A stretch of DNA of 64,000 bases, taken from IMG/VR virus record IMGVR_UViG_3300025012_000049, positions 32,304-96,303 of that record. One strand, given 5' to 3'. Below the pieces are notes generated by a model. That model was not told the origin of the DNA. It saw only the letters and a program-made list of their open reading frames with translations, and did no database searches. The stretch is from a virus. Below are positions 1 through 45,390 of this stretch, in pieces; within the stretch, counting starts at the first letter, position 1; every line of letters begins with the position of its first letter. The translations under genes were made by a program, and so were the position numbers.

Positions 1-2190
1 TATGGAGAAGAATTATGGTGTAATTATGGTTATTACAGTAACGAGCTAATTTGTTGGTCAAGTTCTGGTTCTATTATTTATGATTTTACTAGAAATCCAA
101 CAGGTATTTCCTATAATATATTTAATGATTATGTAAAATACCAAGATAAGATTTATTTTACCTTTGCCTATAAGGGTGACACGGGGTATGAAAATCAGAA
201 GGGTTTAGGTATATTCGACCCTGCAACTGAGACTTCACGATTTGTTATTCCCAGCTATAAAACAGCAGATGATTATGGTTTTTATAAAATGACCCTTAAT
301 GAAGATTTAGGGGAAATATATATTGGTACAAATGTAGATGGTATTGTCATATTCAACATCATTACGGAGCAATTTACTCGTTTAAGTAATGAGGAAATTA
401 CAGGAATCACACCAAATAATACAGATAATTTTTATGGTAATGGTGGTGGTCCTGTATATGATTCAGCAAATGATCGTTTTTTCACTTGTTCTTATAATTA
501 TCGTGCAGTGGTTTCTTTTTTAAGAGAAGGAAAATTTAAACAGACACTATATAAACTTGGAACTAAAACAACTGGATGGGCTTTTTCTGCTGATGCACAA
601 TTAATCAATGGTTCTACAGCTCTTAATGCTTGGCTTAACATGGATGAAGGTAACAAAGTATGGTGTTTTTGGCAGAAAGATACCAATAATTTCACTGACC
701 ATTTTCTTGCTTGGGATGTTATTGAACCATTTTTTGATATAACCAATTATGTAGTAACCAGCAGAGATATTGAATTAAGAAGAACTGTTGATGGAAAACC
801 CAATGAGTTAAGTTTTGCTTTGTCTCATGGTCATTTATTTGATCCAAGTAACCAGTTATCTATTTTTTCCTCTTATGCTAGGAAAGGTCGTAAATTAACT
901 TTTGAAGCAGGAGAAATGATTGGTGGTGTAGCCTATTATCAAAATCAAGGTACATTTTTTATAATTGAAACAAGTATAGAATATTCGGTAAATGTTTATC
1001 CTGAAATAACTATACGGGCAGAAGATAAAAGATATTTGTGGAGTGAAGATAATCAAACAGCAATAGGATATGTTGAAGAAACACCAGAAAATATCTTGAA
1101 TGATTTTTTAACAGGTGAAATAATTGGTTTACTTACTGAAGAGGTAAGTATTCCAACAATGCAGGGAAGTATTTCTATTGATGCACAATGGGCTGAAGTA
1201 GATGCTGTAGAAATCATTAATACTATTGCTAAACGCTTTGGTTATTTCCCAAAAATAACTGTGGATGATATTTTTACTCTAGGTTTAATTTCAGATAGTG
1301 CAAGTGTAGTTCATACATACACAGATAAAAAAGCAATTATGAAATATACACCGGATGATAATTATTCATCGTTTATTAATCGTATAATTGTTACCGGAGA
1401 AGAAAAAGAAGAGATAGATGTACTTTTTGCAGAAGAAAGAGTAGCTACTTTAAATGGTACTGCTGGTTGGTGGGGTCATAAAAAGACTTATGATATTTAC
1501 TATTCAGATGATGGTAGTCGCAGGGTAAGGTATCCACGATTGGTAAAGTTGGAAACTACCTCAAGTATCATGTTTGAGTTGGCTGGTTCTGTTGATGAAT
1601 CCATTAATTATATAGACCCCAATGATAAATATTGTACTGTAAAGATTGATTGTCCAGATTTAATTCCATATTTTGCAGCAGCTTTAGGTATTATTGTTGG
1701 TAGTTATTGGATACCAGATCTTGATGTTAGTATTGGTCCAAACCCAACACTACCTATTGGTCGATACATTGGTGATGGTGGTATTTTCCTAGCTTTGAAT
1801 ATATTAGGTTCAATGGTTAATTATCAATATGAAATTTGGGGTGTTCCTGTAGGCAATATCCGTAGATCAGTACAATATACAGAAAATGATGAATTATTAC
1901 AGCAAGAAATTGGCAGAATAATAAGAGATATGATTGAAGGATTTGCTTGTTATACTGTAGCTGATTGCCGTTTTGTTGCTGAATTTGAAATGATGATACA
2001 AAAATTACAAAGAAAAAGGGTTACTTTTTCCAAGATAGCTCATCTACAGGATGAAGAGGGGGATACAATACAAGTACCACACCCTTATACAAATTTACCA
2101 ATTAAGTTGTTTATTAGCGATATAAAAAGAAAATGGAAATTTGGGGAAAACGGTTATTGTATTGATGATATAGAGGGTTGGAGAATTTAA
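1..2190 (+). CDS. Baseplate/tail hub-like protein (5' partial)
   Basis: The frame is open from base 1 with no stop, so the gene starts upstream; the ATG at 289 is internal. The first 240 or so residues look like beta-propeller blades (repeated short strands, YIGTNVDG, CSYNYRAVV). The rest resembles tail-hub proteins of long-tailed phages: a strand-rich region with GHLFDPSNQ and RKGRKLTFEAGE, followed by segments typical of baseplate proteins that join tail tube to spike. The next gene starts 2 bases after the stop, so the two are probably co-expressed. The structural role rests on pattern and context rather than a catalytic motif. Confidence 0.6.
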   Translation, partial: YGEELWCNYGYYSNELICWSSSGSIIYDFTRNPTGISYNIFNDYVKYQDKIYFTFAYKGDTGYENQKGLGIFDPATETSRFVIPSYKTADDYGFYKMTLNEDLGEIYIGTNVDGIVIFNIITEQFTRLSNEEITGITPNNTDNFYGNGGGPVYDSANDRFFTCSYNYRAVVSFLREGKFKQTLYKLGTKTTGWAFSADAQLINGSTALNAWLNMDEGNKVWCFWQKDTNNFTDHFLAWDVIEPFFDITNYVVTSRDIELRRTVDGKPNELSFALSHGHLFDPSNQLSIFSSYARKGRKLTFEAGEMIGGVAYYQNQGTFFIIETSIEYSVNVYPEITIRAEDKRYLWSEDNQTAIGYVEETPENILNDFLTGEIIGLLTEEVSIPTMQGSISIDAQWAEVDAVEIINTIAKRFGYFPKITVDDIFTLGLISDSASVVHTYTDKKAIMKYTPDDNYSSFINRIIVTGEEKEEIDVLFAEERVATLNGTAGWWGHKKTYDIYYSDDGSRRVRYPRLVKLETTSSIMFELAGSVDESINYIDPNDKYCTVKIDCPDLIPYFAAALGIIVGSYWIPDLDVSIGPNPTLPIGRYIGDGGIFLALNILGSMVNYQYEIWGVPVGNIRRSVQYTENDELLQQEIGRIIRDMIEGFACYTVADCRFVAEFEMMIQKLQRKRVTFSKIAHLQDEEGDTIQVPHPYTNLPIKLFISDIKRKWKFGENGYCIDDIEGWRI

Positions 2191-2192
2191 TC

Positions 2193-3266
2193 ATGGGCTT
2201 ATTTAATAATAAGAGACTTATACGAAAAAATGCGTTATCTGTTTCCAAATCAAGACAAGAAACCAGAGATGCTATTATATGGGAGGTACTACCAACACAA
2301 CGTTTATGCAAAATAAAAATACAAGGATCAACTAATTTTCTTTATGCGAGATATCCACAAAATTGGGAATCAACCCCACAATACTTAAAAGCTGGTAATG
2401 CGGTAAGAATTGTGCATCGTGGAGGGAATAGAAATATTCTGGAAATAGTGGGGCATGGTAGAAATATACCCACATTTCCAGATTCAACAGACGTAATAGT
2501 TCCAATTGGTTCAAATAATGCAGTGTTAAGTGGTTTGGATATTTATGCTATAAGTGGTGTGATGAGGGTGGAGGTCTATAATGGAACATACAGAATAAAT
2601 GATGTAACTTACAGTGTTGGTGGTTTACTGCTTGGTAATGATTATAATACAATGGTTTTGGGTGATAATGTTATTTTAGGCGAATCTGTTGGGGTGTTTA
2701 CATTTACTGCACCATCGGCAGGTTATTGGCGCTATGATATGCTTGTAATTGGCGCTGATGGAACAATAGATAAAGTTGTTGGTACACAAACAATTAGTGA
2801 TCCAGCAATGCCAGCAACCCCAAGTAGCCATATAAAAATAGGTCATGTTTTGTTGTATGGTGGGATGACAGAAATAACTCAGGCTTATATTAATAAAATG
2901 TGGGAAGTATCTGTGCCTACATCAATGTTGGTTTCTCCGGTTTACTCAGAAATGGATTGGTTGGATAATCCGTTAAATATTACAGTTACAATCAAAGATC
3001 AAAATGGGATAAATCTTTCTGGTAATTGGAATATAAGTGTATCATTTGATGTTGGTAACGGATATTTTGATAATAATCCTGACTTTACAAATGGTATAAA
3101 AAGTACAGGGGGAACAGCTTCAGTAACATTTGCTTATTACAGATTAAATGATTTAATAGGTGAAACAGATGTTTCTCCACAAATAAGATTTAGTTTAAAT
3201 GGATATCCATTTAACATAGTTGTTGTAGTTATGTTATATGATTCTTTAGGCGAGTATATGTTATAG
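2193..3266 (+). CDS. Baseplate/spike-like structural protein
   Basis: 357 residues. ATG 2193 was chosen because GGAG lies 9 bases upstream; an in-frame TTG at 2178 overlaps the previous gene and has no such site. The N-terminal third has an OB-fold-like pattern (IIWEVLPTQRLCKIKIQGS) as in gp5/gpV-type spike proteins. The middle is a Gly/Ser/Thr-rich strand region and the C-terminus looks like an Ig-like domain (LNITVTIKDQNG). It probably sits under the hub protein encoded just upstream. No enzyme motif is visible. Confidence 0.5.
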   Translation: MGLFNNKRLIRKNALSVSKSRQETRDAIIWEVLPTQRLCKIKIQGSTNFLYARYPQNWESTPQYLKAGNAVRIVHRGGNRNILEIVGHGRNIPTFPDSTDVIVPIGSNNAVLSGLDIYAISGVMRVEVYNGTYRINDVTYSVGGLLLGNDYNTMVLGDNVILGESVGVFTFTAPSAGYWRYDMLVIGADGTIDKVVGTQTISDPAMPATPSSHIKIGHVLLYGGMTEITQAYINKMWEVSVPTSMLVSPVYSEMDWLDNPLNITVTIKDQNGINLSGNWNISVSFDVGNGYFDNNPDFTNGIKSTGGTASVTFAYYRLNDLIGETDVSPQIRFSLNGYPFNIVVVVMLYDSLGEYML

Positions 3267-3280
3267 AAAGGAAAATTAAA

Positions 3281-3514
3281 ATGACAGATAGAGAACTGTT
3301 GGAGTTTATTTTGACAAAAGTTATAAATATTGAACAACAATTAACAGAAAGCAAAGCAGAACAAGAACGATACAAACAAAAATCCATAAGAATAAGGCAA
3401 CGAGCAAAATTGCAAATGGAGGCACAAATGAGCCATATGCCTCCAGCAATAAGACAAATAATGCAAGCAGCAATTCCTACAAATATAGATGATGAAGATG
3501 AAGGAGAAAACTAA
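3281..3514 (+). CDS. Small coiled-coil protein in the tail operon
   Basis: 77 residues, hydrophilic, with a probable helix/coiled coil over residues 8-45 (many Q, E, K) and an acidic tail (DDEDEGEN). An AGAAAGGAAA ribosome site lies upstream, and its stop overlaps the ATG of the next gene. A chaperone or linker role is possible, but nothing specific is recognised. Confidence 0.6.
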   Translation: MTDRELLEFILTKVINIEQQLTESKAEQERYKQKSIRIRQRAKLQMEAQMSHMPPAIRQIMQAAIPTNIDDEDEGEN

Positions 3515-4284
3515 TGTATAATTTTATTACTGCTTTGGTTGAGGGAACAACAAGATTTAATAAAGTGGATATGGAGGCACAAACCAAAGACTTAGATAAA
3601 GCTATTACTTATAAACATAATTTTCTTTTTCATTGTGATGGGGATATTACTTGGTCAAGCGGTACACTCACTTGGTCAGATAAAATGAGGATTATTTTCA
3701 TATCTGATGCCGGGAATGCTATTGCTAATGAAATCGCTGCTGGTAATATTGCTTTAGCGGATAACGAATATGCTTATGTTGATTTAAATGAAACCAACAA
3801 TAGTGTATTGACCGTTTCCAAAACCACCATTACTACCGGGGCCGCTGCTGGATATATTGGTGTTGGTCGAGTAGTATTAGGTTATCGAAATACCGCCAGT
3901 GATAATTTTTATCCAGTTGCTATTAAGAAAAAGTTTGAAACGGCTTTAACCGGGATTGGTTTGGAATTAACTGGTTATTCTGAAACAGAGGTTGGACCTG
4001 TTGATGCCTCTGGCGGAACGGCTAATATTGATTATGCAGCAGGAAATGTGCAGAGAGTCACTATTGGCGATGGTGTGGATGCAGCACTGACCTTTACCAA
4101 CTTACCTACAGGAAAAAGTTGTTCGGCAACACTACGATTAGAAATGGCAGGAGCAGTGCCAACAACCATTACATTACAAGGGACAACCATTGATACTACC
4201 GGAGTAACTGCCACGGGAGAAATTCTCGTAGAAGCTATTCGGATTAGTACGGATTGGTATATGGCGGTGCATCATGCCTCTTAG
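3514..4284 (+). CDS. Tail fibre/baseplate-like protein
   Basis: 256 residues; the ATG overlaps the preceding stop. The N-terminus looks like a virion attachment segment, followed by Thr/Gly/Ala-rich strand repeats common in fibre shafts (TTITTGAAAGYIGVGRVVLG, then a VQRVTIGDG/TTITLQG jelly-roll-like end). Base composition from about 3640 to 4260 is visibly richer in GC than the neighbours, which suggests module exchange. A receptor-binding or fibre role is inferred. Confidence 0.5.
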   Translation: MYNFITALVEGTTRFNKVDMEAQTKDLDKAITYKHNFLFHCDGDITWSSGTLTWSDKMRIIFISDAGNAIANEIAAGNIALADNEYAYVDLNETNNSVLTVSKTTITTGAAAGYIGVGRVVLGYRNTASDNFYPVAIKKKFETALTGIGLELTGYSETEVGPVDASGGTANIDYAAGNVQRVTIGDGVDAALTFTNLPTGKSCSATLRLEMAGAVPTTITLQGTTIDTTGVTATGEILVEAIRISTDWYMAVHHAS

Positions 4285-16095: not shown

Positions 16096-16798
16096 TTGTC
16101 TCCTCTTCAGTCAAAAATCTAAATATCCAGCCTTTATATGTTTTTATTTTTCCAAGGATATAAGCACTTATTAAATTTTGTGATAGACCGTGCTTTTTAG
16201 CAAAATCAGTTTGATTATTGCTTATATATTTTACCCCTTCTGGTGAAGTAGCTTCAAACCATTTATTTTTTCTGGTATTTTTATTTTACTCACTCCGAGG
16301 AATCCAACAACAATTCTCTTTACAGTAGTTGCCGTTTATATCTTTTCTTTCAATAGTTATTGGATTGTTTTTTGATAATACATCTCTATATGTTTGTTTT
16401 ATAGCAATTAAATAAGACATATACATATCTTTTTTGAATTCCAAAAAATCTCCCCACCTTGGGTCATAGGTTATACCCCTTCCACCATAGTCATTGAAAG
16501 ATTTACAGTTTATATCATTGCATCTTTGTCTTATTCCTTTCCACAAAATATAAAATTTAGATTTTCCTGACCTTTTAGCGAACCCATGTTTTGTGTTTAC
16601 TTCTTTTATTCTTTCTATTGTATAACAACCACAACTTTTTGCTTTACCTGTTTTTAGGGTTGCTGCTGTTACCTTTACTTTGTTCCCACAATCACACTCA
16701 CATAACCATACATTTTGTCTATATTTATTTTTACCAATAATCATTTTAGCGGTTAACCTTGTAAATTTTTTATCAGTTAAGTCCAGAGGCATAGCCAT
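16076..16798 (-). pseudogene. HNH-like homing endonuclease interrupted by an ochre codon
   Basis: The intact 170-residue part (16286-16798) has the FTRLTA...CDCGN...SCGC N-terminal zinc segment and the nuclease signature DYGGRGI...RW..F..F...ITIERKDINGNYCKENCCW. After TAA at 16286-16288 the same frame continues (KNTRKNKWFEATSPEG...GWIFRFLTEE) and matches the full-length relative at 35001-35717 to its end. That copy has Gln two residues before KNTR, so CAA to TAA is the simplest history. The lost part is the C-terminal DNA-binding domain. The final codons supply the GAGGAG site for the exonuclease gene. Confidence 0.85.
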
Positions 16799-34771: not shown

Positions 34772-35026
34772 TTATGAGAATAATTCCTGATTAAAGAATT
34801 CAATTTCAGCATTGATAGCATCTTCCCTTTTAACAAATGCCATAGGAAGACAGCAACCAGTATAAATGCCGTGTAGAATTGTGACAACCCATTTTTGAAT
34901 ATTTGCATTAAACTCAACTTCACTAACACGTTTTATTTCTTTTTTGCCTTCAAACTCAGAAAGAAAATCTGAGTACAAAGAATGAATTGTTCCATCTGGT
35001 TTAATTATTAGGTTTATTTCTTTCAT
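34772..35026 (-). CDS. Small protein resembling the DUF2997 start
   Basis: 84 residues. KEINLIIKPDGTIHSLYSD recalls the strand-turn-strand start of DUF2997, with an unrelated C-terminus (two Cys at GCC). Its ribosome site GGAGAAA lies within the last codons of the homing endonuclease upstream. Confidence 0.5.
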   Translation of the reverse strand: MKEINLIIKPDGTIHSLYSDFLSEFEGKKEIKRVSEVEFNANIQKWVVTILHGIYTGCCLPMAFVKREDAINAEIEFFNQELFS

Positions 35027-35717
35027 TTTTAAATTTCTCCAATATATCCTCTTCTGTTAGATATCTAAAAACCCAGCCTTTATGTTGTTTATATTTCCCC
35101 AATAAACAATTGTTCAAACTTTTTCTGTTTAGTTTGTGTTCTTTAGAAAAATCAGATTGGTTTTTACTTTTGTATTTTTTTCCATTTGGAGAAAATGCTA
35201 TAAACCATTTATTTCTCCTTGTATTTTTTCCCTGTAGATTTTTTGGTATAAAAACACAATTAACAAAAGTGTAGTTATTATTACTATCTTTTCTTTCAAG
35301 GGTCAGGTAGTTTTTTTCTGTTATTTCTTTTCTATATACCTTTTTGGCATGAATATACTTAAAATACATATCTTTTTTAAACTCTAAAAAATCATTCCAT
35401 CTAGGATCATGAATTATACCTCTACCACCATAAAAAGGATAATCAAGGGTGTTTTTATTATTACATCTTCTTCGCATGGAAGACCAGTATTTATAAAGAA
35501 TATGTTTTGTTTCCCCATGCTTTTTGCTTAAATTTCCTCTGATTTCGCGTGTAAGACAACCACATGATTTTGTATGTCCATTTAACAAAGCATAAATTCT
35601 TACTGAACTTATTTTATTATTGTCACAAACACATACGCAGAGAAAATTATATGTTTTTGTTTTGTCTTTTTTTATTACTGTTAATCTCCCAAATTTCTTC
35701 CCTATAATATCATTCAT
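35001..35717 (-). CDS. HNH-like homing endonuclease (intact)
   Basis: 238 residues in three parts: an N-terminal zinc-like segment (GRLTVIKK...CVCVCDNN...SCGC), the nuclease core (RRRCNN...FYGGRGI..DPRW.DFLEFKKDMYF...LTLERKDSNNNYTFVNC) and a C-terminal DNA-binding domain (KWFIAFSPNGKKYKS...HKGWVFRYL) like NUMOD-type repeats. It is inserted between DUF1257 and the next gene of the module, and its end overlaps that gene by 26 bases. A relative with a stop is at 16076. Confidence 0.75.
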   Translation of the reverse strand: MNDIIGKKFGRLTVIKKDKTKTYNFLCVCVCDNNKISSVRIYALLNGHTKSCGCLTREIRGNLSKKHGETKHILYKYWSSMRRRCNNKNTLDYPFYGGRGIIHDPRWNDFLEFKKDMYFKYIHAKKVYRKEITEKNYLTLERKDSNNNYTFVNCVFIPKNLQGKNTRRNKWFIAFSPNGKKYKSKNQSDFSKEHKLNRKSLNNCLLGKYKQHKGWVFRYLTEEDILEKFKNERNKPNN

Positions 35718-39838: not shown

Positions 39839-40036
39839 TTATTTCTCCTTTCTGCCAGCGTAAAAACCAGCCATAAAGATATATTCCAATTGTTTGTTTT
39901 TATCCATGATGTTTAAATGATCTTTATTCATTTTAAAGAAATATTCTTTAGCTTTAAATCCTTGTTGATAATCATCCAATGTCAAATTTTCCTCTTTATA
40001 TTTTATTTTTAAATTATACCTTTTGAATTTATTCAT
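39839..40036 (-). CDS. Hypothetical protein
   Basis: 65 residues; overlaps the polymerase stop by ATGA. Basic and helical (DDYQQGFKAKEYFFKMNKDHL, FMAGFYAGRKEK). Unknown, but translationally coupled to the polymerase. Confidence 0.5.
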   Translation of the reverse strand: MNKFKRYNLKIKYKEENLTLDDYQQGFKAKEYFFKMNKDHLNIMDKNKQLEYIFMAGFYAGRKEK

Positions 40037-42258
40037 ACATATTTAAACTCCCAATCTTTTAATTGATATGGTTTATCTTCTTTATCTTTTTTACCAGCTA
40101 ATATTTTAGCAATTAAACCAGTATCCATTCCCATTACCTCAGTAAAACCATGTAAGAATTTCTCTTTGAATACTTCTTCACTAGGTATATGTCTTGCTTC
40201 AAATAATTTATTTTCCAATTTTAAATCCAGCCAATTACTATCTGACAGCTCCCATTCTGCTTCCAACTTAACCTTTCCTAACCATTTAAACATGGGTTTG
40301 ATAGTCATACAACCTTCAACCAAATCCATGACTTGTTCAGCTTCATTTTTAAAGATATTGAAATAACCAGAGTCATGAATCTGACCAACAACTTTACTTC
40401 TCAAATCTAATTCTCGCATTTTGTTTTCTGTTTCAATCAAGGAATGTAGCAGCAAATGAAATGAGGTTGATTGTATTGGAAAATTAATAATCTCATTACG
40501 TTTCATTGGATAACGTCTTCTGAAGCCCAATGGATTTTCCACATAACCTAAATCATAATAACTATCAACAATCCATTTTTGCCATTCTTCCACACCACTA
40601 TAACGTTTATAAAAAACTTTTTGGCATTCAGTAATGTGTTGTTCTGAATAATCCTTAAAGAAATCACTCCAAGATTTATCAAATCCTTTTACCTGTTTGG
40701 CTTTTTGAAAAGCTTTCTTTACATATTCTACATAGAAATCAGATTTCCTGAATTCCTCTGCCATGGAAATTGAACTGGCACCAAACAAATTAGCAAAAGT
40801 AAAATTATTCTTGGCAAGAAATCTTTCATCCTTATGGGTTGCTTTTATTTCATCGACTGATTTGTTAATACCAAAAATAACTCCTGCCCAATGGGAATGT
40901 TGGTCATAACCATTATTTAAATCTTCAATTAATTGGTCGTCTTCTGATATAGCGGCAGCTACTTTAACTTCAGCACCAACATAATCGACCTCTCCAAGCA
41001 TCCCCTCTTGGAGATTTAATTGATAATTCCCACATTGATACTGTTTATAAAATTCAATTCTGGTAAAAATTTTTCTGATATTATGCCAAGGAACACCATT
41101 AATAATATCACCATGTTTTGGTATGGTGTTATGTACCACAATATTGTTTGCTACAAAAGAGTGTGAATCTTCAATTGTTAAATCAAAAGTCTCACACTCA
41201 CCGGCAGGAATAATACTTACAATTTCTTTTTCTTCAAACGCTTGTAAGTTGGCCGATACATTTTCATTAATGCTTCCCTCATTGATAAACCAATTGATAG
41301 ACGGTAATGAAATCTCCCTGTTGATATGCCATACTCTCTTGCCCAATCTGCCAATGATTGTGTTTTTCCTAAATAAGTTAAAAGTCTTTTTACTCTTCGA
41401 TTGTCTGCTTGCATTTTTGGGGTTGCCCAACAACAATTCTTTGGTGAATAATTGCCATTTACATTTATTCGTTCTATTGACCAACCCTTTTCTGGTTTTT
41501 CTCCCATATCTTTTAGAAAAAATCTGAATTTGTGCCATCTTGTGCAAACTTTTATTCCTCTTCCCCCGTATCGTGGATAATCTTTGCTTGTTTTGCTGTT
41601 GCATCTGTTTTTCATTGCTGCCCAACTGTAATAAGTTGGGCTTGTATAATTCTTTGTTCTGTGACCTAAACTCATAACAAATATCTCCTTTAAGTAATTG
41701 GTCTGTACGAACCCATCCACGTTTTGTTAGATATGGATGATTTTCCGTACTTGTTACCATATTACCACTTTCAGAAGATACGGCAAACACCTTTTTTATT
41801 CCATTACGATACACACCAATAATTTTTTTCCAAGAACCATCATGAGTAAGAACTTCAAATTGTTCATTATTTTCATATCTTTTTACAATTTCCTCAATTG
41901 CAATATTTCCTTTATTTGTTAATACTAATACACCCCCTTTAAGGCATTGGAAGAGAGTAGCAGAACTTCTATATGTACGAGTAGAATGCAACCAAAAATC
42001 AGTATGAAAGAAAATATCTGATTCATTAGCAATAAGTCTACGAAAACCTTTCACATAGGTATTCTTGGCTTTTTTCAATTTTCTTGCATTAATCAATAAT
42101 TTACAAAACTCAACATTTTCCTTTTCTGCGTAATGTAACAATACATCTTCTGCTACCGAATAATTACCCTTATCATTTTTCCCTTTAGTTGGTTTCAATT
42201 CAAGAAATTCAAAGAGAAATTGCTGCATTTGTACAGGGCTGGCAATATTGAAAATCAT
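40033..42258 (-). CDS. Family A DNA polymerase, polymerase half, with intein
   Basis: 741-residue precursor, mature about 468. The start FNIASPVQMQQFLFEFL is the point where Pol I palms reach NixSPkQL, so the exonuclease domain is missing; it is encoded at 43768. Polymerase motifs: TRTYRSSATLFQ|TIPKHGD (the LQNIP-like site, split by the intein), motif A DYVGAEVKVAAA, O-helix RFLAKNNFTFANLFGA, motif C QIHDSGYF (HDS where most have HDE). Intein at residues 105-377. Confidence 0.88.
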   Translation of the reverse strand: MIFNIASPVQMQQFLFEFLELKPTKGKNDKGNYSVAEDVLLHYAEKENVEFCKLLINARKLKKAKNTYVKGFRRLIANESDIFFHTDFWLHSTRTYRSSATLFQCLKGGVLVLTNKGNIAIEEIVKRYENNEQFEVLTHDGSWKKIIGVYRNGIKKVFAVSSESGNMVTSTENHPYLTKRGWVRTDQLLKGDICYEFRSQNKELYKPNLLQLGSNEKQMQQQNKQRLSTIRGKRNKSLHKMAQIQIFSKRYGRKTRKGLVNRTNKCKWQLFTKELLLGNPKNASRQSKSKKTFNLFRKNTIIGRLGKRVWHINREISLPSINWFINEGSINENVSANLQAFEEKEIVSIIPAGECETFDLTIEDSHSFVANNIVVHNTIPKHGDIINGVPWHNIRKIFTRIEFYKQYQCGNYQLNLQEGMLGEVDYVGAEVKVAAAISEDDQLIEDLNNGYDQHSHWAGVIFGINKSVDEIKATHKDERFLAKNNFTFANLFGASSISMAEEFRKSDFYVEYVKKAFQKAKQVKGFDKSWSDFFKDYSEQHITECQKVFYKRYSGVEEWQKWIVDSYYDLGYVENPLGFRRRYPMKRNEIINFPIQSTSFHLLLHSLIETENKMRELDLRSKVVGQIHDSGYFNIFKNEAEQVMDLVEGCMTIKPMFKWLGKVKLEAEWELSDSNWLDLKLENKLFEARHIPSEEVFKEKFLHGFTEVMGMDTGLIAKILAGKKDKEDKPYQLKDWEFKYV
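41128..41946 (-). other. Intein (273 aa) in DNA polymerase
   Basis: Starts Cys1 in CLKGGVLVLT, block B-like STENHPYLT, and ends DSHSFVANNIVVHN followed by Thr+1; the His-Asn pair and Thr nucleophile are correct for splicing. Residues about 195-337 have no intein motif, are highly basic, and are the second frame of the endonuclease gene at 41217. The frame stays open throughout. Confidence 0.88.
41217..41675 (-). CDS. HNH-like homing endonuclease nested in the intein, other frame
   Basis: 152 residues from ATG 41675, with AAAGGAG 9 bases upstream (encoded by the intein's LLKGDICYE). Its signature matches the free-standing genes here: SWAAMKNRCNS...YGGRGIKVC.RWHKF...FLKDMGEKP...SIERINVNGNYSPKNCCWATPKMQADNRR. 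A C-terminal helix-turn-helix (QSLADWAREYGISTGRFHYRL) likely binds DNA. It lies in a different frame from the intein and ends within it. It lacks the N-terminal zinc segment. Confidence 0.8.
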   Translation of the reverse strand: MSLGHRTKNYTSPTYYSWAAMKNRCNSKTSKDYPRYGGRGIKVCTRWHKFRFFLKDMGEKPEKGWSIERINVNGNYSPKNCCWATPKMQADNRRVKRLLTYLGKTQSLADWAREYGISTGRFHYRLSIGLSMREALMKMYRPTYKRLKKKKL

Positions 42259-42614
42259 GATGATACACCCAATCTTTTAACAATTTTATTTTCAAAAACA
42301 GTATATTTAAAACCAAATAATGTATCCTCTATTGAATAAGTCCAACACATGCCATCATACTCTGGTTCTTCCATTATTTCATAAATCAAATCAGAATTTG
42401 GCATGTTATGTATTTTAATAATATCTCCTTTTTTAAATTCAGGTTCCGTTTTTTTCCAGTTTTTATCTTCTTGAAAATGAATATTATCAATTAATCCATT
42501 TTTATTATCTCTACATTGACATGGTTCAAAAGTTATTTTAATTTCTTGTGTTTTATTTTCAACACTATATTTTAATTCTTGTAAGCAAAAAGGGCATTCA
42601 ACTATCAGTCTCAT
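42255..42614 (-). CDS. Zinc-finger protein with SH3-like body
   Basis: 119 residues. CPFC near residue 7 and CQC near 32 suggest a zinc site; FKKGDIIKIHNMPNSDLIYEI and MCWTYSIEDTLFGFKYTVFE look like a small barrel. It overlaps the polymerase start by ATGA, within the insertion that divides the polymerase gene. Confidence 0.55.
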   Translation of the reverse strand: MRLIVECPFCLQELKYSVENKTQEIKITFEPCQCRDNKNGLIDNIHFQEDKNWKKTEPEFKKGDIIKIHNMPNSDLIYEIMEEPEYDGMCWTYSIEDTLFGFKYTVFENKIVKRLGVSS

Positions 42615-42615
42615 G

Positions 42616-43593
42616 TTATTTACTCCTTAAAGAAATACGTTTTGGTTTAGTTCTTTTCAATTTGTATCTTTTTGGTAATGTTGATGGAATTTCTAAATAA
42701 TCAAGAACTTTTTGTATTCCAAGATTCTCCATACAATATTTATGTAATTGTGGGTGTATTTTTCTCATTATATGAAATCTATTAATTTTTTCCATATGAA
42801 TGCCAAACATACAAAACATACAGCCAGTTCTTCCAATTCCTTTTTTATAAATATCTGCATAAGGTAAATTATTTGTATGGATGTATTTCCAAATGTCTTT
42901 TTCTGTAAAAATAGACAATGGTTTACTTTGTGGTTTGTTTAGTGTGAAACTATTGCATCCATATTCTTTCCATTGACCCAAACGAACACCACTATCATCG
43001 GTCATTGTCCCTATATATGGTTTTCTATTTGTTTGTTTTTCATATATATATATAGGTTTCTTTTTTATCCAGTCACAACAGTATTCACTTATTTTAAATG
43101 GTGCTATTAATAGTTTATGCCACTTATCAGACAACTTAGCTCTCTGTTTATATACACCTTTATTCCATCCAGTTAAATGATATTTGCTAATATTTGAATT
43201 GGGATTGTGTCTTATTTTCCTTATTCTTAAAGAAACTTCTTTACTTATTACTGGATAACCATATTCTTCAATTACTTGTTTGAAATTCTTTTTAGGTTTA
43301 ACCCACATAACATTATCAAATGTTTTAACAAACTCTCTGATTTCAGGCCATTCAAGACCAGTATCAGAAAATACAGCAGGAACATCTGGATAAATTTGTC
43401 TAACCAAATGCAATAAAACTGTTGAATCTTTTCCACCAGAAAAAGAAACATATACATTTCCATTCCAATATTCATACCACTCTTTGATTTTCTCTTGTGC
43501 ATAAAGTACCTTTGTTTCTAATGATAAAGATTGTAAAAGTTTTAAATCTTGGTATGTTCTTTTTTGTTTTCTTTTTAGTTTGTGTTTTATCAT
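42616..43593 (-). CDS. PAPS reductase-family PP-loop protein
   Basis: 325 residues. SFSGGKDSTVLLHL near residue 52 is the PP-loop ATP site; DTGLEWPEIREFV and PVISKEVSLRIRKI follow the PAPS reductase/DndC pattern, with cysteines in CCDW and GRTGCMFCMFG near the end that could ligate Fe-S. Possible roles are nucleotide or DNA sulfur modification or tRNA thiolation. It lies between the two polymerase genes. Ends PKRISLRSK, encoded by DNA identical to the end of the UDG-exonuclease gene. Confidence 0.75.
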   Translation of the reverse strand: MIKHKLKRKQKRTYQDLKLLQSLSLETKVLYAQEKIKEWYEYWNGNVYVSFSGGKDSTVLLHLVRQIYPDVPAVFSDTGLEWPEIREFVKTFDNVMWVKPKKNFKQVIEEYGYPVISKEVSLRIRKIRHNPNSNISKYHLTGWNKGVYKQRAKLSDKWHKLLIAPFKISEYCCDWIKKKPIYIYEKQTNRKPYIGTMTDDSGVRLGQWKEYGCNSFTLNKPQSKPLSIFTEKDIWKYIHTNNLPYADIYKKGIGRTGCMFCMFGIHMEKINRFHIMRKIHPQLHKYCMENLGIQKVLDYLEIPSTLPKRYKLKRTKPKRISLRSK

Positions 43594-43766
43594 ACAATTA
43601 TATCTTCTACTCTTAAAATATCACAAGTATCAAAGGTTAAATTGTACCCTTTAATTGTTCTTACATATAAATTATCTTCATTTCCATCCAACAGCAACTC
43701 ACAAATAAACTCATCATTATTATTCATGATTACTTTAAATTTTAATTGTTCCATAAGTTTTTCCAT
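43590..43766 (-). CDS. Hypothetical 58-residue protein
   Basis: AGGAGA upstream, ATGA overlap with the next gene. Strand-rich (LKFKVIMNNNDEFICELLLDG, VRTIKGYNLTFDTCDI). Unknown; likely an SH3-like fold partner of the PP-loop gene. Confidence 0.65.
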   Translation of the reverse strand: MEKLMEQLKFKVIMNNNDEFICELLLDGNEDNLYVRTIKGYNLTFDTCDILRVEDIIV

Positions 43767-43767
43767 C

Positions 43768-45390
43768 TTATCTTCTCCTTAAAGAAATACGTTTTGGTTT
43801 TTCAAAACATAAAGATTGTAAATCTTTTTCCTCTTTCTTCTTTTTAGTCTTTCCTGTTTTGTTCTCAAGGTATTTGTTAAACTCAATAACTTCAGGCATT
43901 GATTCAATTTCTGCTTCAATTCGTTCTATTTCTTTATCCAGAAACTTTTCAAATTCATTCAATTCCTGTTCACCAATATTGATTCCCCTTTGGGTCATAT
44001 CAGCAAACAACATATGACCATCATATAAGAATTCATAATTTTCCTTGGCTTTGGGATATATATCAAATAAGTCTTTTCGAAACAATAAAAAATTATTAAA
44101 TGTAGTGATAACGTCTAAAGCATTGTATTGAATCATATCTTCTTTTGGTGCTTCTCGAATCTTATTTACTTTTTCAAAGGTATAGTTACCAACATCATCA
44201 TTATCTTCCTCTTCTGAATCATTATCTTCTTTATCAATGGATTTTTTACTGGTTTCCAAATATTTCTTAATAGTCTCATTATATGGTGGAATTCCAAACC
44301 TTACCAAGTTCTGAAAATCCAAGGAAGTACAACCTTCCCGCTCATCAATAACATGGGTTGCCAACATGGTACAAAACATATTTTCAATTCTTTTAATTTT
44401 AAAAATAAACCGACTGGCTAAATCTTCAAATTTACTATTTTGAATAACTTTACAAATATTTTTATTGGTTAGTAATTTCTGCATTTGCAAATGAAACCAT
44501 ATTTCTATTTTCTTATCCTTCTTCCAAAAATCCTCATGGAATACCCATGCACTTTGCTTATTAGCAAAGGCAATATAGATTATTTCAAAGTAATGGTCAT
44601 AAGGAAACAGATTAGTGGTTTCATAGTCTAAAGCAATCTCTTTACATTGGTTCCATAAATTAAATAATTGCTTGGCTTCTTTTACTGTTTTAACTTCGGT
44701 AATAGTTATACCTTCAAGTATTTTCCGTTCCTGCAATATTTTTTTGACTTCGGTACGTTTGTAGGCAATTTTATTCCAAAACTTAAAAATTCTTTCCAAG
44801 TCACGTTTGTAAGTATGTTGATAATAATAATTCAATTCATCAATACCGTTTTTCTTACTATACATTTCCCGATTGTAAGGATCATAAACTGGAAATACCA
44901 AACAATTATATTCATAATTAGGTATAATTCTATTTCTAAGTTTGGAAATGGCATATTTATTTTTCAGGTTGAATAAATATTTAAATGCCATTTCACCACA
45001 ACAAATAATCAATTTAGGTTTTAACTCTTTAAGACGTGCATCCAAAATACTTTGACAGCATTTAAAATGTGTATCCGAGGTTTTCTTTTTGGAAGGATTA
45101 TAGCAAGAGACAGCATGAAGCATTGCCGATTGTTTGGCTAGATTGATACCAAATTTAATAGCAATACTTCTGAGAATTTTAGATCGTGAATCAGCAAATG
45201 GTTTGCCTTTTTCATCATCTTCTTTGGATACCTTTTGGCCCAATATAATTAATCCATCATATTGTGGTCCTTGATATATTTCCAATACTGGATTATCAAT
45301 CTTATTATTTTTCAAACCACATTTATTACAATCAAATTTTGAATTGTTAGTTTTTTTATTTAATGATGGTATTGGAAAATAAAAAGACAT
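43768..45390 (-). CDS. Family 4 UDG fused to DNA polymerase 3'-5' exonuclease
   Basis: 540 residues. Residues 20-200 form a family-4 uracil-DNA glycosylase with Fe-S cysteines spaced as expected (C21xxC24, C96, C112), LIILGQKVS and GKPFADSRSKIL. Residues 225-480 are the Pol I exonuclease: exo I ALDYET, exo II IQNSKFED, exo III YNALDV. It continues to the start of the thumb and stops exactly where the polymerase gene at 42258 begins. Ends PKRISLRRR, whose codons also provide the ribosome site of the next gene. Confidence 0.85.
   Translation of the reverse strand: MSFYFPIPSLNKKTNNSKFDCNKCGLKNNKIDNPVLEIYQGPQYDGLIILGQKVSKEDDEKGKPFADSRSKILRSIAIKFGINLAKQSAMLHAVSCYNPSKKKTSDTHFKCCQSILDARLKELKPKLIICCGEMAFKYLFNLKNKYAISKLRNRIIPNYEYNCLVFPVYDPYNREMYSKKNGIDELNYYYQHTYKRDLERIFKFWNKIAYKRTEVKKILQERKILEGITITEVKTVKEAKQLFNLWNQCKEIALDYETTNLFPYDHYFEIIYIAFANKQSAWVFHEDFWKKDKKIEIWFHLQMQKLLTNKNICKVIQNSKFEDLASRFIFKIKRIENMFCTMLATHVIDEREGCTSLDFQNLVRFGIPPYNETIKKYLETSKKSIDKEDNDSEEEDNDDVGNYTFEKVNKIREAPKEDMIQYNALDVITTFNNFLLFRKDLFDIYPKAKENYEFLYDGHMLFADMTQRGINIGEQELNEFEKFLDKEIERIEAEIESMPEVIEFNKYLENKTGKTKKKKEEKDLQSLCFEKPKRISLRRR

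What the first reader, a model, noticed from the sequence alone, without database searches (positions are those of the whole stretch)
41128..41946. A homing endonuclease gene nested in an intein, in a different reading frame
The polymerase intein has intact splice blocks at both ends, but its middle 140 residues are meaningless and basic. The same bases, read in another minus frame from ATG 41675 with an AAAGGAG site, encode a 152-residue HNH-like endonuclease with full signature. The polymerase frame crosses the whole gene without a stop, which is unlikely by chance in such AT-rich DNA, so selection keeps both frames open. The intein's KGD codons make the ribosome site. Thus one stretch encodes an intein spacer and a free-standing homing enzyme. 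I do not know a described case.
Basis: partly seen in the sequence, partly recalled or inferred. Interest (0 to 1): 0.85.

Follow-up and report, generated by a model that had tools for sequence, protein, structure and literature searches.

The report
Nuclease gene hidden inside an intein
In this phage, and in many others, a DNA-cutting 'homing' gene lies in a second reading frame inside a self-splicing protein segment of the DNA polymerase, so the same bases encode a disposable protein linker and a separate enzyme; textbook inteins instead carry the enzyme in the same frame.

Summary
Window 41128-41946 (-) is a class 1 intein in a family A DNA polymerase. A complete 152-codon phage 'HNH endonuclease' gene (ATG 41675, TAA 41217, AAAGGAG upstream) lies inside it in the +1 frame. 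The polymerase frame crosses the gene without a stop. The same architecture occurs at the same polymerase site in ten more distinct sequences, seven with a short nuclease gene and three with a long one. Across these, a third-position T that would create an intein-frame stop occurs 0/526 times against 24% elsewhere (P = 1.5e-52); 32 ordinary relatives show no avoidance. Synonymous sites are saturated, so selection keeps the linker open but not its sequence. AlphaFold folds the splicing domain and leaves the overlap disordered. Empty, mini-intein, decayed and split versions of the site exist, and intein and polymerase relationships disagree, as expected for mobility. Cultured phages (Shewanella SFCi1, Caulobacter GB2A, Salmonella SE2, APSE-1 and others) carry the same design at other polymerase sites; one common origin is rejected (AU P = 0.002). 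Splicing, expression and cleavage are untested. The closest published case, the ShiLan element, lacks an intein; a preprint I could not read may overlap.

The parts
40033..42258 (-). DNA polymerase family A C-terminal half with intein, 741 aa
   Evidence: Pfam DNA_pol_A 2e-39; phrog_17
41128..41946 (-). class 1 intein, 273 aa: Cys1, TxNH block, His-Asn end, +1 Thr
   Evidence: Pfam Intein_splicing; TIGR01445 and TIGR01443; boundaries fit uninterrupted FQ|T(I/V/L)PKH sites in relatives
41659..41946 (-). N-terminal part of the splicing (Hint) domain, residues 1-96
   Evidence: AlphaFold pLDDT about 90 or more over residues 1-90; Foldseek to mini-inteins, best E 9.5e-10
41266..41658 (-). linker in the intein frame, residues 97-227, mostly predicted disordered; coincides with the folded part of the nested gene
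   Evidence: pLDDT under 50 at residues 97-113 and 127-227, short helix between; identity no higher than expected from the nuclease frame
41128..41265 (-). C-terminal part of the splicing domain, residues 228-273
   Evidence: pLDDT about 86-95 over residues 231-273; GECETFDLTI..SHSFVA conserved
41217..41675 (-). nested gene for a free-standing HNH-type phage endonuclease, 152 aa, +1 frame, own ATG and TAA
   Evidence: phrog_3377 7e-47; about 37-49% identical to its best relatives in annotated phages; 56-70% to nested relatives
41685..41691 (-). AAAGGAG ribosome-binding site for the nested gene, formed by intein codons for L-L-K-G-D
   Evidence: duplex -8.7 kcal/mol, as strong at 1.4% of nearby positions; 18 of 28 minus-strand genes here have an SD core, 10.6% of all ATG triplets do

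Best explanation
A free-standing phage HNH homing gene sits inside a mini-intein of the DNA polymerase, at the place between the two splicing blocks where ordinary inteins carry an in-frame endonuclease, but out of frame. Ribosomes reading the polymerase frame cross it as a stop-free, sequence-indifferent linker, and the intein splices out to give a working polymerase. Other ribosomes start inside the intein at the nested ATG and make the separate endonuclease, which cuts intein-free polymerase genes so that the whole intein-plus-gene is copied in. Being out of frame lets the nuclease keep its own start and stop without truncating the polymerase; selection removes any synonymous change that would place a stop in the intein frame. 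Shown by sequence: both genes, both frames open, purifying selection on openness, recurrence, empty and decayed sites, incongruent relationships. Inferred: splicing, internal initiation, cleavage and homing.
For: Same architecture and frame at the same polymerase site in L006, L018, L021, L022, L023, L055, L080, L083, L085 and L093. Stop avoidance 0/526 vs 325/1347, P = 1.5e-52; 32 free-standing relatives 28% vs 31%. Complementary order: intein residues 97-113 and 127-227 below pLDDT 50; nuclease below 50 only at 1-9 and 140-152. Of 78 polymerase loci read at this site, 10 have the intein and 68 run through. Remnant with the nuclease core deleted (L084), mini-intein (L086), split intein (L088). 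The window's splicing domain is 65% identical to that of L018 and groups with it (96/94), while its polymerase is at most 28% identical to any of them: horizontal transfer. Recurrence in cultured phages at other polymerase sites in frames +1 and +2; nested nucleases are not one clade, AU P = 0.002.
Against: No expression, splicing or cleavage data. Pfam and PDB sequence searches and Foldseek find no HNH match for the nuclease. Ribosome-site strength varies among loci; L085 has no ATG before the core. Splicing blocks at the other polymerase sites of cultured phages are not recognised by Pfam and were identified by eye.
Confidence: 0.78

Rival explanations
1. Sequencing or assembly artefact: two frameshifts have moved an ordinary in-frame endonuclease domain out of frame.
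For: Ordinary HNH inteins are in frame; an in-frame HNH-like intein even sits upstream in the same gene in L018.
Against: Eleven distinct sequences at this site share the frame, indels between the short-gene loci in the overlap are multiples of three, and the nuclease has its own start and stop.
Confidence: 0.01
2. The nested gene is a dead passenger; only the intein frame matters.
For: A remnant lacking the nuclease core (L084) and a nuclease-free mini-intein (L086) show the intein persists without it.
Against: The nuclease is complete and 51-75% identical between loci although synonymous sites are saturated (observed 0.274, expected 0.271), so the nuclease protein is under purifying selection.
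Confidence: 0.05
3. The nuclease is made by ribosomal frameshifting as a fusion to the N-terminal half of the intein, not by internal initiation.
For: Several nested genes (e.g. L023, L083) have only weak ribosome sites.
Against: The nuclease frame is closed 4-17 codons before the ATG in the ten loci with a clear ATG (frame starts, ATGs); ATG and a purine-rich site follow the block-B (K)GD codons in seven loci.
Confidence: 0.08
4. The element does not splice; like the ShiLan element the polymerase tolerates it as a loop.
For: Published out-of-frame HNH insertions without splicing domains exist (PMC11855218).
Against: All splicing residues are invariant in seven loci (C1, T67, H70, H272, N273), the splicing domain is predicted folded and matches solved mini-inteins, and the insertion lies at a motif that I take to correspond to the conserved LQNIP of Pol I (own knowledge).
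Confidence: 0.06

Closest known systems
ShiLan domain and Pacc40 insertion in phage DNA methylases (Arsenault, Gosselin and Gogarten 2025, PMC11855218)
   Same: HNH endonuclease hidden out of frame in an insertion that stays open in the host frame; disjunct distribution read as homing
   Different: No intein or intron splicing domain, insertion thought to stay in the methylase; GTG start without a ribosome site. Here a complete class 1 intein surrounds the gene
APSE-1 DNA polymerase P45 with nested P46 (GenBank NC_000935.1)
   Same: HNH gene nested in the +1 frame of an intein-like element in a phage family A polymerase; same nuclease families
   Different: Different polymerase site and a divergent splicing domain. 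I found no paper in the searched library that explains the overlap
Conventional inteins with an in-frame endonuclease domain
   Same: Splicing blocks at both ends, endonuclease between them, mobile by homing
   Different: There the endonuclease is a domain of the intein polypeptide; here it is a separate gene in another frame
Fractured genes with split inteins around a free-standing homing endonuclease (Dassa et al. 2009; from own knowledge, paper not held)
   Same: Separate endonuclease gene between two intein halves; seen here in terminase loci L012-L014
   Different: There the intein and host gene are broken in two and splice in trans; here the frame stays continuous across the nuclease gene

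Membership tests
class 1 intein | Cys1, block B TxxH, terminal His-Asn, nucleophile at +1 | tested here: met
   C1, T67, N69, H70, H272, N273 invariant in seven loci; +1 Thr
class 1 intein | Hint fold | tested here: met
   Foldseek to Ssp DnaB and Mtu RecA mini-inteins, E 9.5e-10 to about 1e-8
class 1 intein | protein splicing | not testable with these tools
   needs expression
class 1 intein | exact seam with intein-free homologues | tested here: met
   68 of 78 loci read Q|T(I/V/L)PK or similar without interruption
phage HNH endonuclease family phrog_3377/phrog_374 | profile match over most of the protein | tested here: met
   7.3e-47, residues 6-148
phage HNH endonuclease family phrog_3377/phrog_374 | recognised HNH catalytic domain | tested here: inconclusive
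   no Pfam, PDB or Foldseek match; conserved Rx(D/N)VNxxYxxxNCxW block and no clear DHxD motif
homing endonuclease | cuts the intein-free site and spreads | tested here: inconclusive
   sporadic distribution and incongruent relationships; cleavage untested
ShiLan-type insertion | no splicing domain in the host frame | tested here: not met
   intein blocks present
intein with in-frame endonuclease | endonuclease domain in the intein reading frame | tested here: not met
   nuclease is in the +1 frame
split intein / fractured gene | stop codon separating the intein halves | tested here: not met
   one 741-codon ORF

The most novel reading that the evidence does not exclude
Phage polymerase inteins have a second, general way to carry a homing endonuclease: a free-standing HNH gene captured out of frame, read by internal initiation, while the intein frame is kept only as a stop-free disordered linker. 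It has arisen at least twice at different polymerase sites, in two frames, and passes through capture, decay, loss and splitting.
Probability: 0.6. Interest if true: 0.85.

Novelty: new variant of a known kind. Interest (0 to 1): 0.74.

Why it matters
Inteins and homing genes are thought to form composite elements when an endonuclease gene invades a mini-intein, but the known products are in-frame fusions, which need the invader to lose its stop and match the frame. Out-of-frame capture needs neither: the invader keeps its start and stop and the host frame needs only to be stop-free. The series at one polymerase site (empty, mini-intein, short or long nested nuclease, decayed, split) makes the homing cycle testable with real sequences. 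It is also a clean natural case of overlapping genes in which each folded segment of one product faces a disordered segment of the other, and annotation pipelines mostly miss the nested gene.

Tried and rejected
Frameshift artefact: rejected by recurrence. Constraint on the linker sequence: not detected, identity in the overlap 0.317 against 0.306 +/- 0.008 expected from the nuclease frame and stop avoidance alone, 26 of 300 null draws as high, and fourfold sites are saturated. A conserved basic linker: rejected. One origin for all nested nucleases: rejected, AU P = 0.002; one origin of those at this polymerase site alone was not rejected, P = 0.53. Direct scans with the window polymerase found no relatives. 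The genome-contig scan gave one partial locus, not examined. Nuclease fold search gave nothing usable, probably because the model is weak. The preprint Gosselin et al. 2025 (10.1101/2025.01.02.630785), whose title mentions non-canonical architecture of actinobacteriophage inteins, could not be read.

Full report
Observation. The window lies in a 96,303-base IMG/VR virus record. ORF 40033-42258 (-) encodes the C-terminal half of a family A DNA polymerase interrupted by an intein at 41128-41946. Inside it, in the +1 frame, ATG 41675 to TAA 41217 encodes a 152-residue protein matching phrog_3377 and phrog_374, named HNH endonuclease, at 7e-47 and 1e-40. In a collection of annotated phages 860 records hold relatives. 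AAAGGAG lies nine bases before the ATG and is written by the L-K-G-D codons that end block B. In this phage 18 of 28 minus-strand genes examined have such a core, against 10.6% of all ATG triplets.

Chance. With the nuclease protein fixed and codons drawn synonymously, none of 20,000 randomisations left the intein frame open; 10-18 stops are expected and the third frame has 15.

Relatives. The closest nuclease hit of the first scan, L006 (66% identical, 41% GC), lies in the same position of a polymerase intein with both frames open. Further scans gave L018, L021, L022, L023, L055 and L080 with the short nuclease, and L083, L085 and L093 with a longer one. L081 and L082 repeat L080, and L019 is a C-terminal fragment. 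All use the same seam, Q|C...HN|T(I/V/L)PK, and the same frame relation; indels among the seven first loci in the overlap are multiples of three.

Selection. In this frame a stop arises only where a nuclease codon ends in T and the next begins AA, AG or GA. Over the window and eleven relatives (one of them the decayed L084) this happens 0 times in 526 opportunities; T ends 325 of 1347 other codons (Fisher P = 1.5e-52). In 32 free-standing relatives the fractions are 28% and 31%, and all 48 ordinary relatives counted have stops in this frame. Fourfold sites are saturated among the nested genes (0.274 observed, 0.271 expected), so the loci are nearly independent samples at these positions. Intein-frame identity in the overlap is close to what nuclease conservation plus stop avoidance predicts (0.317 against 0.306 +/- 0.008, 26 of 300 draws as high). 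Linker charge runs from +25 to -15. Selection therefore keeps the linker open and nothing more that I can detect.

Structure. AlphaFold on the seven-sequence alignment gives a confident splicing domain at both ends, with residues 97-113 and 127-227 below pLDDT 50. Foldseek matches Ssp DnaB and Mtu RecA mini-inteins. The nuclease model is below 50 only at residues 1-9 and 140-152. Since nuclease residue n lies over intein residue about n+90, each folded stretch of one product faces a low-confidence stretch of the other. The nuclease model is only fair and matched nothing in the PDB.

Life cycle. Of 78 polymerase loci read at this seam, 10 hold the intein and 68 run through, including one with the contig length of cultured Stenotrophomonas phage DLP_5. 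L084 keeps the intein but has lost the nuclease core, L086 is a 161-residue mini-intein, and L088 is naturally split. The window's splicing domain is 65% identical to that of L018 and groups with L018 and L006 (96/94), yet its polymerase is at most 28% identical to theirs. That is the pattern of a mobile element.

Recurrence. Shewanella phage SFCi1 (KX196154) has an intein-like element at another polymerase site with a 224-codon nuclease hidden in the +1 frame. Its relatives include Caulobacter phage GB2A and APSE-1 (+1), Streptococcus phage Javan255 and Gardnerella phage AB1 (+1), and Salmonella jerseyviruses and Pseudomonas phage MR14 (+2), all open in the host frame with P(open) at or below about 0.015. 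Ruminococcus phage NatCom_29429 has a nuclease-free version. In APSE-1 the nested gene is annotated as P46. The splicing blocks of these elements are visible by eye but not recognised by Pfam. Nested nucleases do not form one clade (AU P = 0.002).

Known or new. Textbook inteins carry in-frame endonucleases (own knowledge). The nearest description found is the ShiLan element (PMC11855218): an out-of-frame HNH gene in a phage methylase insertion, without splicing domain or ribosome site. Its authors cite a preprint on non-canonical actinobacteriophage inteins that I could not read. I therefore call this a new variant of a known kind: a real intein with an out-of-frame homing gene, recurrent and under selection.

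What is not shown: splicing, nuclease expression and cleavage. The nuclease has no Pfam HNH hit, so its catalytic status is open.

Noticed in passing
window 40033-45390: The polymerase is split into two genes (43768-45390 and 40033-42258) with a PAPS-reductase-like gene and small ORFs between; a 37-nt repeat (92%) encoding the gene end KPKRISLR plus the next ribosome site and ATG occurs at 42612-42648 and 43764-43800.
   Followed up: partly
window 35001-35717 and 16286-16798; G000:C1:24782-25156: Further HNH-family genes in the same phage; the one at 16286-16798 looks truncated, with a relative of its continuation lying beyond a stop.
   Followed up: no
L006 1-1681: A split intein just upstream breaks the same polymerase gene, so this protein would need trans-splicing as well as cis-splicing of the nested-gene intein.
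   Followed up: no
L018 around 2000-3834: One polymerase gene carries an in-frame intein with an HNH-like endonuclease region and, a few residues downstream, the out-of-frame type.
   Followed up: no
L012, L013, L014: Terminase large-subunit split inteins with an HNH gene between or overlapping the halves.
   Followed up: no
L185 (Escherichia phage phi G17) 684-4106: Polymerase gene broken in two by a free-standing HNH gene without any intein.
   Followed up: no
L191 (Salmonella phage SE2) 1660-4759: Polymerase annotated as two CDSs because of a frameshift relative to phage YMFM0293; the nested nuclease is unannotated in both.
   Followed up: no
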